A stretch of DNA of 6,813 nt from positions 1-6,813 of the forward strand of contig JBFJWU010000189.1 of the NCBI GenBank assembly GCA_041623475.1, read 5' to 3'. How positions within the stretch are numbered: the stretch's first letter is position 1; every line of letters begins with the position of its first letter. The DNA is from JBFJWU01 sp041623475 [NCBI: bacterium] (lineage in GTDB: Bacteria > J088). Shown piece by piece: positions 2,735-6,813 of this stretch. The position numbers and the translations under genes were made by a program. The notes beneath the pieces were generated by a model. That model was given only the letters and a program-made list of their open reading frames with translations. It had not been told where the DNA came from and ran no database searches.

Positions 2735-4063
2735 ATGACACAACCAGCGGATGTCATTGTGATCGGCGGCGGGCTGGCAGGCTGCGAAGCGGCGTGGGCA
2801 TGCGCCCAGGCAGGTCTGAGGGTCGATCTGTACGAAATGCGGCCAACGCACCCGACCGATGCCCACGAAACGGGGGACCTGGCCGAACTGGTGTGCTCCA
2901 ACAGTTTTCGTGGCCGCAAGCCAGTTCAGGCCCCGGGACTGCTGAAAATCGAAATGCAACGGCTGGACAGCCTGGTCATGCAGGCGGCTGCCGCCGCCGA
3001 AGTCCCGGCCGGGGGCGCGTGGGCTGTGGACCGGCAGGGTTTTTCCCGGTACATGACGGACGCGATCCAGGACCATCAGCGCATTCGGGTCATTCGCGAA
3101 CGCCTGGACGATATTCCCCGGGACCAACCGGTCATTGTTGCCACCGGCCCCCTGACCCACCCTCAACTGCAGCACGCAATCGAAGGCCTGGTCAGTTCCC
3201 GGTCGCTGGCGTTCTACGATGCAATCGCACCGATTGTCAGCCGCGACAGCATCGACTGGGATCACGCGTTCCTCAAGGACCGTTGGGAGGACGACACCGG
3301 CGACGCGGTCTACGTCAATTGTCCGCTGGATGAGGCACAGTACGCAGCGTTCCTGGAGGCATTGCTGGCCGGGCCGTATGTACCATACAAGCCATTCGAG
3401 GAAAATATCCGTCATTTCGAGGGCTGCCTGCCGATTGAGGAAATGGCCAGCCGGGGGCCTGATACGCTGCGGTACGGACCAATGAAGCCGGTTGGGCTGC
3501 GGCATCCGGTGACCGGCAAGGACCACTTTGCCGTTGTCCAGTTGCGGCCGGACAATCGCAGCCAATCGCTGCTGAATATCGTCGGGTTCCAGACAAAGAT
3601 GACGTATGGTGCGCAGAAGGATGCGTTCCGGCTGATCCCGGCGTTGCGCAATGCCACGTTTGTCCGCCTGGGCAGCATGCATCGCAATACGTTCCACGAC
3701 AGTCCGCGGCTGCTGGACCCCGACCTGTCATTGCGAACCCATCCGGCGATTCGTTTTGCCGGCCAGATGACCGGTGTCGAGGGTTATATCGAAAGCGCGA
3801 CCAGCGGGATTATTGCCGGAATGGCGGCGGCGGCGGCCCATCGTGGCCAGGCGTTTGCCCCACCACCTGCAGAAACGGCAACCGGGGCGCTGCTCCGCTA
3901 TATTTCCGATCCGGTGGTCGACCCCTTCCAGCCAATGAATATCAACTTTGGATTGTTCCCGGACCTGCCCCAGCGGGCCCGGGGCAAGGAAAAACGGCAG
4001 ATACTGGCCGACCGGGCCCTGGCCGCCCTTGACCAGTGGCTGCAGCAACAGGGCCAGGGATGA
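2735..4063 (+). CDS. trmFO: Methylenetetrahydrofolate--tRNA-(uracil-5-)-methyltransferase TrmFO
   Basis: Flavoenzyme that makes 5-methyluridine at position 54 of the tRNA T-loop, using methylenetetrahydrofolate as carbon donor and reduced FAD, unlike SAM-dependent TrmA. The frame is open from 2639, but that extension only reads through the dnaB 3' end. ATG 2735 gives 442 residues, normal for the family, and places the FAD Rossmann motif (VIVIGGGLAGCEAAW) at residues 7-21. Other family signatures are YEMRP (33-37), ELVCSNSFRG with Cys54, AWAVDRQGFS, FYDAIAPIV, FEGCLPIEEMASRG with Cys231, DTLRYGPMKPVGL, NIVGFQTKM, MHRNTF and FAGQMTGVEGYIES. Cys54 and Cys231 match the two catalytic cysteines known in the Bacillus enzyme (Cys53 and Cys226). 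The C-terminal FAD/NAD-binding part looks complete. The stop codon overlaps the mutT start as ATGA, suggesting translational coupling. The product is soluble and cytoplasmic. Confidence 0.96.
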   Translation: MTQPADVIVIGGGLAGCEAAWACAQAGLRVDLYEMRPTHPTDAHETGDLAELVCSNSFRGRKPVQAPGLLKIEMQRLDSLVMQAAAAAEVPAGGAWAVDRQGFSRYMTDAIQDHQRIRVIRERLDDIPRDQPVIVATGPLTHPQLQHAIEGLVSSRSLAFYDAIAPIVSRDSIDWDHAFLKDRWEDDTGDAVYVNCPLDEAQYAAFLEALLAGPYVPYKPFEENIRHFEGCLPIEEMASRGPDTLRYGPMKPVGLRHPVTGKDHFAVVQLRPDNRSQSLLNIVGFQTKMTYGAQKDAFRLIPALRNATFVRLGSMHRNTFHDSPRLLDPDLSLRTHPAIRFAGQMTGVEGYIESATSGIIAGMAAAAAHRGQAFAPPPAETATGALLRYISDPVVDPFQPMNINFGLFPDLPQRARGKEKRQILADRALAALDQWLQQQGQG

Positions 4064-4455
4064 TTTCGGTCGTCGCGGCGATCTGCATCCGCGAGGGGCG
4101 CGTCCTGCTCAGCCAGCGACCACCGGGCAAGCATCTGGCAGGCTGCTGGGAGTTTCCAGGGGGAAAGATGGAAGACGGCGAAACCCCCGAGGCCGCCCTG
4201 GAGCGGGAACTCCGTGAGGAGTTGGATGTCGGGGTGGTGCGCTGCGAATCCTTCGATTTTGTCCTCCACCGCTACCCCGACCGCGAGGTCCTGCTGCTGT
4301 TCTACCTGGCGGAACTGGATGGCGAACCGACGCCACAGGAGGACAACCCCTGCAAATGGGTGCCGGTCAGTGAATTACCTGGACAGCAGATGCCACCGGC
4401 AGACCAGGATCTGGTCCGGCGACTTGCCCGGGAGTTTGACGCGGCCGGGACGTGA
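4060..4455 (+). CDS. mutT: MutT-family Nudix hydrolase, probable 8-oxo-dGTP diphosphatase
   Basis: Small cytoplasmic hydrolase, probably converting 8-oxo-dGTP to the monophosphate to prevent A:T to C:G transversions. ATG 4060 gives 131 residues (E. coli MutT has 129) and overlaps the trmFO TGA; a GTG at 4036 would add eight residues and is less likely. The Nudix box runs from Gly35 to Val57: GKMEDGE, seven residues, then RELREEL, with Arg49, Glu50, Glu53 and Glu54 present. The near-terminal Gly of the consensus is Asp56. CWEFPGGK precedes the box. The C-terminal half keeps the MutT pattern (YPDREVLLLFYL, DGEP, KWVPVSEL, PPADQDLV), including the region near the Asn that reads 8-oxoguanine in E. 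coli, where Asp is seen here. MutT is therefore the best call, but a broader Nudix substrate range is possible. No thiamine phosphate synthase domain is fused to it. Confidence 0.88.
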   Translation: MISVVAAICIREGRVLLSQRPPGKHLAGCWEFPGGKMEDGETPEAALERELREELDVGVVRCESFDFVLHRYPDREVLLLFYLAELDGEPTPQEDNPCKWVPVSELPGQQMPPADQDLVRRLAREFDAAGT

Positions 4456-4466
4456 TCCAAATCACA
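4451..4466 (+). promoter_or_regulatory. CRP/FNR-family operator-like palindrome
   Basis: CGTGATCCAAATCACA differs from the E. coli CRP core TGTGA-N6-TCACA only at the first base. GTGAT and ATCAC form a perfect 5-base dyad with a 4-base centre. It overlaps the mutT stop codon (4453-4455). Its centre at 4458.5 is exactly 41.5 bases upstream of a start predicted from the TAAAAT hexamer. The motif also resembles FNR sites (TTGAT-N4-ATCAA) but has the CRP-type G and C at the discriminating positions. The regulator could be any CRP-family protein, such as CRP, Vfr or Clp; none is encoded in the window. Confidence 0.6.
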
Positions 4467-4487
4467 GCGCCTTCAAACATTGCAAAG

Positions 4488-4493
4488 TAAAAT
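4488..4493 (+). promoter_or_regulatory. Probable -10 element of the lipoprotein gene promoter
   Basis: TAAAAT matches five of six bases of the sigma-70 -10 consensus and sits in a locally A-rich patch of a GC-rich region. The hexamers 15-18 bp upstream (around CAGCGC) do not resemble TTGACA. That fits an activator-dependent promoter using the palindrome at 4451-4466. Transcription would begin near 4500, giving a leader of about 60 nt before the ATG at 4560. Confidence 0.5.
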
Positions 4494-4507
4494 AGCGGTC
4501 ATGATCA

Positions 4508-4524
4508 CCGGGTGTGCGGCCCGG
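4508..4524 (+). other. Small stem-loop in the predicted lipoprotein mRNA leader
   Basis: CCGGG (4508-4512) and CCCGG (4520-4524) can form a 5 bp GC stem around a 7-base loop (TGTGCGG). No T tract follows, so it is not an intrinsic terminator. It could stabilise the leader or have no role; a 5 bp stem can occur by chance in GC-rich DNA. Confidence 0.25.
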
Positions 4525-4549
4525 ACCAGACATTCCCAGCAAACATGAC

Positions 4550-4555
4550 GGGGGA
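4550..4555 (+). promoter_or_regulatory. Ribosome binding site candidate for the lipoprotein gene
   Basis: GGGGGA lies four bases before ATG 4560, closer than usual. It helps favour 4560 over the in-frame ATG at 4545, which lacks a purine-rich site and would add an acidic MTGDP leader. The in-frame ATG at 4569 is 13 bases away and cannot be fully excluded. Confidence 0.45.
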
Positions 4556-4559
4556 CCCC

Positions 4560-6813
4560 ATGCGATTGATGACGAAATTATGTCTATTTGCCTTGATGGC
4601 CGGAGTATCCGGTGCCTGCAACGACACCATCGTTCAGCAGGTGACGCCAACGTCGACCAGCGTTGACGTGGCAAGTGACGGCGTGATCAACGGGGTCGTT
4701 GAGCTAGAGGGACTGGGTGGCTGCGAGGGGCTGTCCATCAGCGTCGCCGGTCCGGGATTTGTAACGGATGTCATCACAACCGCAGGTGGCAGCTTTTTTG
4801 TTGGCGACCTGACGCCCGGGGCCTACCAGTTTGAAATTGCCGCCGACGGATTTGAGCCGTTCAATGAAGTCATTGTCTACGACGCGACCGGCGCGCTGGA
4901 CCTGGACCCCATTGTCCTGCCGCCGGCGACGGTGCCGGTCGCCGGTGACCTGTCATTGTCTGATGGACAGAATCCGGCAGGCAGCACGATCGAGCTGCAG
5001 GCGACCGGCGCCGTCGATGCGCCCGCCAGCACGGTCTGCGCAAACGATTCCGCACCCGTCAGTGCGGAAGAGACCGTCGTCGCCGATGCGTCCGGCAATT
5101 ATACGGGACGTGTGCCTGTGCGCAGCGATTCGGTGACGGTCCGTGCCAGTCGTCCCGGCTACGAGGGTGCCGAACGGTCTGTCAGCGGCTCTGACATCCA
5201 GTCCGCGACCGAGGACGCGCCCGCCAGCGTACCGTCGATGGTGCTGAACCCGCTGACGGGGTTCGTCAACATCAAGGGCGGTGTCGCGGTGACCAGTTCT
5301 TCGGTCATTACCCTGCAGATCAGTGCCTTCAACAGCGTCAGCGAAATGGGCCTGGGACAGGTCAGTCCGATCGACCAGTGCATGTATGGCGACTGGCAAC
5401 TGTTCGAAGCGGAAACCGATTTTACATTAACCGGCCCCGATGGAGAATATTCGATCTGTGTCCGGGTACGCAATAACCTGGGCCAGGAGTTCACGGATAT
5501 GCGCGTCAACGTGCTGCTGGATTCGACACCGCCGACACCGTTGCTGGCACGCATCGTCGGCGGCCCGTACATCAGCAACGTCAGTGTCAACCTGGAACTG
5601 GATGTGGTTGATGCCGGTCCCGTGGACATGATTGTGTCCAATGATACGACCTACAACGAACCGGTTCAGCGGTTCGCGCCGACGATTACCCACCTGCTGG
5701 ACAGTGGCGATGGCAGCAAGGATGTCTATGTGCGGTTCATTGACCAGGCTGGCAATACCGCTGACATTGCGACGCCAGCGGTAACGATGGATACCCAGCC
5801 GCCGACCAACCCTCAGGTGCGGACGGCCGGCCAACTGGTTGACCAGGGCAGCATCGATGTCGAATTGTACCCGGGCACTGTGACCGACAGTAACTTTTCA
5901 CATTTTGAGGTCGCCGGCGGATCGGACTATCCGGCAGGTTTTTCTGCCGTTGGCTTTCCCTATACCCAGACCCTGTTTACCTTCGGCCTGGTGCAGGATG
6001 CCGAAAACGTTCTGCAGATCCGGGCTGTTGACCTGGCCGGAAACGTGTCGATTCCCGGCCAGGTGGTGATCAGCGAGGATTCGACCGACCCCCCGGCAGT
6101 CAATGATTTGCAGATCAGCAACGGCAACGAGCGGGCGACGCTGCGGTGGTCCACGCCTGCTGCATCGGATATTGATGGTTACTGGATCTACTACGGTACA
6201 CAGTCGCGCATCAGCAATTTTGCCAGTGAAGAAAATACGTACCTGGGTAAGTTTGCCGACCAGGGCCAGAGCCCGATCTGGGTCCCGGCCGGTTCGACCC
6301 GGACGTTTACCATCAGCGGCCTGCCCAACGGCAATGCCCTGTTTGCGACGGTAGTCGCCGCAGATCGCGTCGGCCATCGCTCGCCGTTCGGGAACGAGGC
6401 CGCGGCGTGGCCCAATATTGTGACACCAGAACTGGTTTATCCGGCAGATCGCCGGACGGCGCTCAATCCGCTGTTGGCCGAATTGCTGTTGCAGCACAAG
6501 ATGGCGACCTATACCGCGGAATCGATTCTGTATGGGACATCAAAAGGCAACCTGCTGGCGTGGGACATCTCGGACAACCTGAACCCCGTCCTGACGGCGA
6601 CCGTTGCGGTCGGGCAGCCGGATACGATCCTTGCCGACCTGGTCATTAATGAAACGAACGACCGCCTTTATGTCATTGCCTATGTCCCGGACCAGTCGGT
6701 GATCGGCTACACGCCGGCAATTTCAGTTTTTGATATTTCCGTGCCGGGCTCACCAATTTACGTTGATGATGTCTTCCTGCCCGGCGACCAACTGCCGGTG
6801 GCGATCTCCGGCA
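4560..6813 (+). CDS. Large secreted lipoprotein with Ig-like, FN3 and LVIVD beta-propeller repeats (3' partial)
   Basis: An open frame of 751 codons runs from ATG 4560 to the right edge without a stop. The N-terminus is a short lipoprotein signal peptide: Arg2 and Lys6, a hydrophobic core (LCLFALMAGV), then SGAC with Cys20 as the lipidated residue. Asn follows at +2, which fits outer-membrane or surface placement. Residues 44-120 and about 125-215 resemble carboxypeptidase-regulatory-like beta domains (GGSFFVGDLTPGAYQFEIAA; ASGNYTGRVPVRSDSVTVRA). Three related Ig-like units follow, each with a VR/IR...AGN-type motif near residues 302, 392 and 488, closing with DSTPP, DTQPP and DSTDPP. Residues 511-612 look like FN3 (ATLRWSTPAASDIDGYWIYY). 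From about 655, LLAWDISDNLNPV and ISVFDISVPGSPI are LVIVD-type propeller repeats. No catalytic motif is visible. The role is unknown; a surface binding or structural protein is a guess. It probably has its own promoter in 4451-4500. Confidence 0.85.
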   Translation, partial: MRLMTKLCLFALMAGVSGACNDTIVQQVTPTSTSVDVASDGVINGVVELEGLGGCEGLSISVAGPGFVTDVITTAGGSFFVGDLTPGAYQFEIAADGFEPFNEVIVYDATGALDLDPIVLPPATVPVAGDLSLSDGQNPAGSTIELQATGAVDAPASTVCANDSAPVSAEETVVADASGNYTGRVPVRSDSVTVRASRPGYEGAERSVSGSDIQSATEDAPASVPSMVLNPLTGFVNIKGGVAVTSSSVITLQISAFNSVSEMGLGQVSPIDQCMYGDWQLFEAETDFTLTGPDGEYSICVRVRNNLGQEFTDMRVNVLLDSTPPTPLLARIVGGPYISNVSVNLELDVVDAGPVDMIVSNDTTYNEPVQRFAPTITHLLDSGDGSKDVYVRFIDQAGNTADIATPAVTMDTQPPTNPQVRTAGQLVDQGSIDVELYPGTVTDSNFSHFEVAGGSDYPAGFSAVGFPYTQTLFTFGLVQDAENVLQIRAVDLAGNVSIPGQVVISEDSTDPPAVNDLQISNGNERATLRWSTPAASDIDGYWIYYGTQSRISNFASEENTYLGKFADQGQSPIWVPAGSTRTFTISGLPNGNALFATVVAADRVGHRSPFGNEAAAWPNIVTPELVYPADRRTALNPLLAELLLQHKMATYTAESILYGTSKGNLLAWDISDNLNPVLTATVAVGQPDTILADLVINETNDRLYVIAYVPDQSVIGYTPAISVFDISVPGSPIYVDDVFLPGDQLPVAISG
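5229..6095 (+). repeat. Three diverged Ig-like protein repeats inside the lipoprotein gene
   Basis: Residues about 224-325, 326-415 and 416-512 end in comparable segments: SICVRVRNNLGQ, DVYVRFIDQAGN and VLQIRAVDLAGN. Each is followed by a short strand and a D[ST]-x(1-2)-PP linker. The aligned arginines are 90 and 96 residues apart. Similarity is at protein level only, so the duplication is old and not a recent DNA repeat. Boundaries are approximate. Confidence 0.6.

What the first reader, a model, noticed from the sequence alone, without database searches (positions are those of the whole stretch)
4451..4500. Class II CRP-type promoter geometry at the end of mutT
Directly seen: a near-perfect TGTGA-N6-TCACA-type palindrome (4451-4466), a TAAAAT hexamer at 4488-4493, and no recognisable -35. 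A start seven bases after the hexamer would be at 4500, putting the palindrome centre at -41.5. This is the known class II CRP/FNR position, where the activator replaces the -35 contact. Two elements falling in exact register argues against chance. The site also covers the mutT stop codon, so regulation of the lipoprotein gene is embedded in coding sequence of the upstream gene.
Basis: partly seen in the sequence, partly recalled or inferred. Interest (0 to 1): 0.6.

Follow-up and report, generated by a model that had tools for sequence, protein, structure and literature searches.

The report
CRP-type activator promoter before lipoprotein gene
A short mirror-image DNA site and a promoter box sit at the spacing used by a well-known bacterial gene switch (CRP), and the same arrangement recurs before related surface-protein genes in the closest relative found, so this is very probably a real but ordinary switch, seen in a little-known bacterial phylum.

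Summary
CGTGATCCAAATCACA (4451-4466) has one mismatch to TGTGA-N6-TCACA; TAAAAT (4488-4493) follows 21 nt later, giving a centre of -41.5 if transcription starts at 4500. The strong evidence is comparative. The closest relative found is the MAG J088 (only genome held for its phylum; GTDB J088, "Candidatus Sifixiota"). It has 33 such palindromes (12 for the control pattern). In their flanks, -10-like hexamers peak sharply at 20-23 nt (13 seen, 1.9 expected). A matrix trained on eight J088 promoters, without the lipoprotein ones, ranks 4451 first in the window (29.5 bits; best other place 8.1; 0 of 200 shuffles reach it). Two of three J088 homologues of the lipoprotein with a readable 5' end carry the same architecture beside other upstream genes; J088 mutT lacks it. 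So the site follows the lipoprotein, and its overlap with the mutT stop codon looks incidental. J088 encodes a CRP-type regulator with an SRETVSR recognition helix. Verdict: class II CRP-type promoter, new member of a known kind. Ligand, start site and the window's own regulator are untested.

The parts
4451..4466 (+). CRP-type palindromic operator CGTGATCCAAATCACA, centre 4458.5 (-41.5 to an assumed start at 4500)
   Evidence: top site of the window with a matrix trained on J088 promoters
4488..4493 (+). -10 hexamer TAAAAT (5 of 6 to TATAAT), 21 nt after the palindrome; no extended -10
   Evidence: same hexamer before the J088 C202 homologue
4500..4500 (+). inferred transcription start (seventh base after the hexamer), inferred 60-nt leader
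   Evidence: arithmetic only; not mapped
4560..6813 (+). target gene: large putative lipoprotein (signal sequence and lipobox-like SGAC, by eye; CarboxypepD_reg domain), open at window end
4060..4455 (+). mutT (Nudix, 8-oxo-dGTP diphosphatase type); its TGA stop (4453-4455) lies in the left half-site
2735..4063 (+). trmFO, overlapping the mutT start by ATGA; probably one operon with mutT

Best explanation
4451-4493 is a class II CRP-type promoter for the lipoprotein gene at 4560. A CRP-family dimer carrying a small-molecule signal (a cyclic nucleotide by family) binds the palindrome at about -41.5. It sits where a -35 contact would be, touches RNA polymerase and lets it start from TAAAAT, giving a leader of about 60 nt. 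The gene can thus be switched on independently of the trmFO-mutT operon upstream. Shown: the sequence, the spacing, its recurrence in J088 promoters and before lipoprotein homologues, and a fitting regulator in J088. Inferred: binding, activation rather than repression, start site, ligand, and presence of the regulator in the window's own genome.
For: Palindrome and -10 at 21-nt spacing, no -35 found. J088 has 33 palindromes at up to 1 mismatch against 12 for the backward control. -10-like hexamers at 20-23 nt from these: 13, where the mean of 0.465 per offset predicts 1.9; the highest of 196 four-offset windows; 12 of 33 sites (Poisson tail 9e-8; range set after seeing the listing). A matrix trained on 8 J088 promoters without the lipoprotein ones gives the window site 29.5, best other place 8.1, 0 of 200 shuffles as high. 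J088 lipoprotein homologues on C377 and C202 have palindromes with -10 at 20 and 22 nt, beside a DUF6901 gene and a divergent kinase-like gene instead of mutT. The J088 C178 protein carries HQEIAGMAGTSRETVSRIL, matches NCBIfam CRP at 1.5e-36 and PDB CAP 1i5z at 5.2e-26. J088 has four class III cyclase-domain matches.
Against: One of three J088 homologues with a readable 5' end (C184) has no palindrome (best 4 mismatches). 21 of the 33 J088 palindromes have no -10-like hexamer at 20-23 nt, and at least two of the 12 that do (C367, C373) lie inside long open frames. The window's own genome is not held, so its regulator is not seen. The J088 regulator scores below the NCBIfam CRP equivalog cut-off (125.9 of 266 bits). 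Opposite the T-N pair of PDB 3d0s, recalled as cAMP contacts, it has A-D (alignment), so the ligand may not be cAMP. A second HTH_Crp_2 protein of J088 (C56) was not characterised. No orthologue in the same gene order was available.
Confidence: 0.88

Rival explanations
1. The regulator is an FNR/DNR/FixK-type member or another family branch rather than a CRP branch protein; the site works the same way but answers to oxygen, NO or redox.
For: Same family geometry (recalled). J088 has a second HTH_Crp_2 protein over the cut-off (C56) whose recognition helix I did not characterise.
Against: The half-sites read (T/C)GTGA, not TTGAT (FNR consensus recalled). The SRETVSR helix of the C178 protein is the CRP type (role of the residues recalled).
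Confidence: 0.06
2. The palindrome is a repressor or roadblock site, and the gene is transcribed by read-through from trmFO-mutT or from the -10 without activation.
For: No terminator-like site is listed on the + strand between mutT and the lipoprotein, so read-through is possible.
Against: The -10 sits at activator spacing in 12 of 33 J088 sites, far above background, and no -35 is found in the window.
Confidence: 0.04
3. Chance: a TGA stop codon inside GTGAT and an AT-rich spacer happen to look like a class II promoter.
For: The stop codon supplies three letters of the half-site; palindromes of up to 1 mismatch arise 0.17 times per shuffled window.
Against: The combined pattern arises 0.003 times per window; 0 of 200 shuffles reach the matrix score; the pattern recurs before homologous genes.
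Confidence: 0.02
4. The inverted repeat acts as an RNA hairpin (mutT 3' end or terminator).
For: A GUGAU/AUCAC 5-bp stem with a 4-nt loop can form.
Against: Folding is no better than shuffles (z +1.0; 176 of 200 shuffles fold at least as well); no U-run follows and no Rfam match up to E 1 in 4300-4800.
Confidence: 0.01

Closest known systems
Class II CRP-dependent promoters of Escherichia coli, e.g. the semi-synthetic CC(-41.5) promoter and mchA of EAEC 042 (PMC12360894, passages read)
   Same: CRP-type palindrome overlapping the -35 region, -10 hexamer kept, no recognisable -35
   Different: mchA uses an extended -10, the window has none; activation not tested here; organism from a candidate phylum; target is a large lipoprotein of unknown role
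M. tuberculosis CRP and its sites (PMC4117774, passages read)
   Same: PDB 3d0s, the best PDB sequence match to the J088 regulator, is recalled as M. tuberculosis CRP; the paper reports a consensus like that of E. coli CRP and sites both inside and between genes
   Different: The T-N pair of 3d0s is A-D in J088
FNR/FixK class II promoters (recalled)
   Same: Activator centred near -41.5
   Different: Half-site GTGA here, not TTGAT

Membership tests
Class II CRP-type promoter | Palindrome close to TGTGA-N6-TCACA | tested here: met
   1 mismatch of 10
Class II CRP-type promoter | Site overlaps the -35 position; -10 about 20-23 nt after the palindrome | tested here: met
   21 nt, TAAAAT; no -35 found; J088 peak at 20-23 nt
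Class II CRP-type promoter | Transcription start placing the centre near -41.5 | not testable with these tools
   start only inferred
Class II CRP-type promoter | Activation through AR1 and AR2 contacts | not testable with these tools
   needs transcription assays; AR residues of the J088 protein were not analysed
Class II CRP-type promoter | Cognate CRP-family regulator in the genome | tested here: inconclusive
   own genome not held; present in J088 with SRETVSR helix
Class II CRP-type promoter | Site kept before related genes in related genomes | tested here: met
   2 of 3 J088 homologues with a readable 5' end; one genome only; weak homologues in 19 other genomes not examined
cAMP-CRP (ligand cAMP) | cAMP-contacting T/S(N) pair in the C-helix (recalled) | tested here: not met
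   A-D in the J088 protein opposite T-N of 3d0s
cAMP-CRP (ligand cAMP) | NCBIfam CRP equivalog cut-off | tested here: not met
   125.9 bits against 266

The most novel reading that the evidence does not exclude
A candidate phylum of which one genome is held (J088, 'Candidatus Sifixiota') runs a class II CRP-type regulon that includes several lipoprotein or secreted-protein genes. Its regulator has a changed nucleotide pocket (A-D for T-S/N) and may answer to a ligand other than cAMP.
Probability: 0.3. Interest if true: 0.45.

Novelty: new member of a known kind. Interest (0 to 1): 0.36.

Why it matters
It is a sequence-only regulatory prediction in a nearly unknown phylum that held up against an independent genome: the same activator geometry recurs across J088, with a fitting regulator. 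It assigns an operator to a large lipoprotein family of unknown role and gives a cheap reporter test in E. coli. The mechanism itself is textbook.

Tried and rejected
RNA hairpin, terminator or riboswitch reading: folding no better than shuffles, no Rfam match up to E 1 in 4300-4800. Alternative sigma-70 promoter near the gene: none listed at the scan threshold. Conservation at the mutT end: the J088 mutT end has no palindrome (best 4 mismatches) and is followed by an enoyl-CoA-hydratase-like gene (named by eye from the translation), so gene order is not shared. Lipoprotein homologues in other relatives (19 further genomes of 98 with weak matches) were not examined for sites. More members of the phylum: family and phylum searches returned one genome each. 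Papers: CRP regulon/class II/comparative genomics/Deltaproteobacteria (0 papers); Dadabacteria+J088; CRP/candidate phylum/TGTGA and others, at least 4 of 5 terms (57 papers, 8 listed and seen as listing); class II/CRP/41.5 (an unrelated abstract book); Sifixiota; CRP/lipoprotein/stop codon. None of the rows shown is a CRP study in this phylum; 49 of the 57 papers were not listed.

Full report
What is there. The window carries, all on the + strand: a GAF/HD-domain (HD-GYP-type) gene open at the window start, dnaB (1276-2691), trmFO (2735-4063), mutT (4060-4455, ATGA overlap with trmFO) and a long open frame from ATG 4560 to the window end with a signal sequence and lipobox-like SGAC (by eye) and a CarboxypepD_reg domain.

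Chance within the window. One match to TGTGAN6TCACA with up to 2 mismatches is seen and 2.55 are expected, so a loose palindrome alone is not unusual. At up to 1 mismatch the expectation is 0.17. With a -10 of at least 5/6 at 20-23 nt it is 0.003 per window (1 of 300 shuffles), with 4/6 or better 0.007 (2 of 300). The start at 4500 is assumed from the hexamer, so -41.5 restates the 21-nt spacing and is not a second measurement. No -35-bearing promoter is listed near the site.

Where it comes from. No genome is held for the window. L001 shares the order HD-GYP-type gene, dnaB, trmFO (by eye). In a tree of 28 TrmFO rows (the window and 27 chosen of the 80 loci) window and J088 pair with 100/100 support. 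A review table lists J088 as the GTDB name of 'Candidatus Sifixiota', 1 genome, 2.83 Mb, iron-rich hot spring (PMC11382960, two passages seen). The family and phylum searches returned one genome. That the J088 MAG is that table's genome rests on the name and the size (2.8 Mb). The record title calls it Dadabacteria.

The motif in J088. There are 33 palindromes at up to 1 mismatch and 12 matches of the control pattern read backwards. I fetched the flanks of all 33 (33 stretches, two of them for homologues without a listed site). Counting -10-like hexamers (4/6 or better, A2, T6) in both orientations, offsets 20-23 hold 13, against a mean of 0.465 per offset over 0-199, which predicts 1.9. It is the top of 196 four-offset windows, and 12 of 33 sites are involved. 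The Poisson tail is 9e-8, with the range set after seeing the first listing. Of the 14 orientations of the 7 perfect palindromes, 5 have such a hexamer. The flanks of the 12 control matches were not fetched.

Training without the lipoprotein sites. From the 12 sites I trained on 8, chosen by hand. I left out the two lipoprotein sites on purpose, and C367 (L189) and C373 (L190) because they lie inside long open frames; C91 (L197), which also lies inside open frames, was kept. The matrix scores the window site 29.5; its own reverse strand 19.7; the best other place in the window 8.1; 200 shuffles reach at most 22.9. C377 scores 28.3, C202 25.8; the C184 stretch reaches at most 8.4.

The site follows the lipoprotein. 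In J088 three homologues have a readable 5' end: C377, C202, C184. C377 has TGTGATCTGGATCACA, then 20 nt, then GACAAT. C202 has CGTGATGCTGCTCACA, then 22 nt, then TAAAAT. With start codons chosen by eye, inferred leaders are 54 and 36 nt against 60 in the window. Their upstream neighbours are a DUF6901 gene and a divergent kinase-like gene (named by eye). J088 mutT is followed by another gene and has no palindrome at its end. So the overlap with mutT's stop codon looks like an accident of tight spacing.

The regulator. J088 has 21 cNMP_binding matches and 5 HTH_Crp_2 matches, 2 over the cut-off. The best, on C178, is a 225-aa protein with the helix GTSRETVSRIL. It matches NCBIfam CRP at 1.5e-36 but below the equivalog cut-off, and PDB CRP entries (3d0s 2.4e-39; 1i5z 5.2e-26). 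The stretch FGEMALLDGGPRSA, phosphate-binding by family knowledge (recalled), is present. The T-N pair of 3d0s is A-D, so cAMP as ligand is not assured (roles recalled). Four class III cyclase-domain matches are present. The second HTH_Crp_2 protein over the cut-off (C56) was not characterised.

Other J088 genes with the arrangement, from the frames and Pfam: a TPR protein (C173), a short protein with TPR matches below cut-off (C241), a NAD-dependent epimerase (C306), a putative lipoprotein without Pfam match (C376), a secreted-type protein with a TIG match below cut-off (C192), a membrane protein without Pfam match (C362), a ParB_N protein (C390), and a putative lipoprotein with an LppM match below cut-off (C91). 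A further putative lipoprotein (C343) lies behind a perfect palindrome without a -10 at 20-23 nt. I did not test whether lipoproteins are enriched; 'lipoprotein' is by eye.

Conclusion. This is best read as a class II CRP-type promoter for the lipoprotein gene. Class II means that the CRP site overlaps the -35 element (PMC12360894, passages read). Nothing here shows binding or activation. Novelty is low in kind; the value is the comparative support in a phylum with one held genome.

Noticed in passing
window 2735-4455: trmFO and mutT overlap by ATGA, suggesting one translationally coupled operon.
   Followed up: no
window 4560-6813: Large putative lipoprotein with CarboxypepD_reg and weak Ig-like/OmpL47-type matches below cut-off; J088 has homologues in open frames of 1377, 1474 and 1633 aa.
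   Followed up: partly
L115 (J088 C178): CRP-type regulator with an SRETVSR recognition helix but A-D in place of the pair recalled as cAMP contacts.
   Followed up: partly
L169-L201 (J088): A predicted class II CRP-type regulon with several putative lipoprotein genes.
   Followed up: partly
L171 (J088 C184): One lipoprotein homologue lacks the palindrome; it may be regulated otherwise.
   Followed up: no
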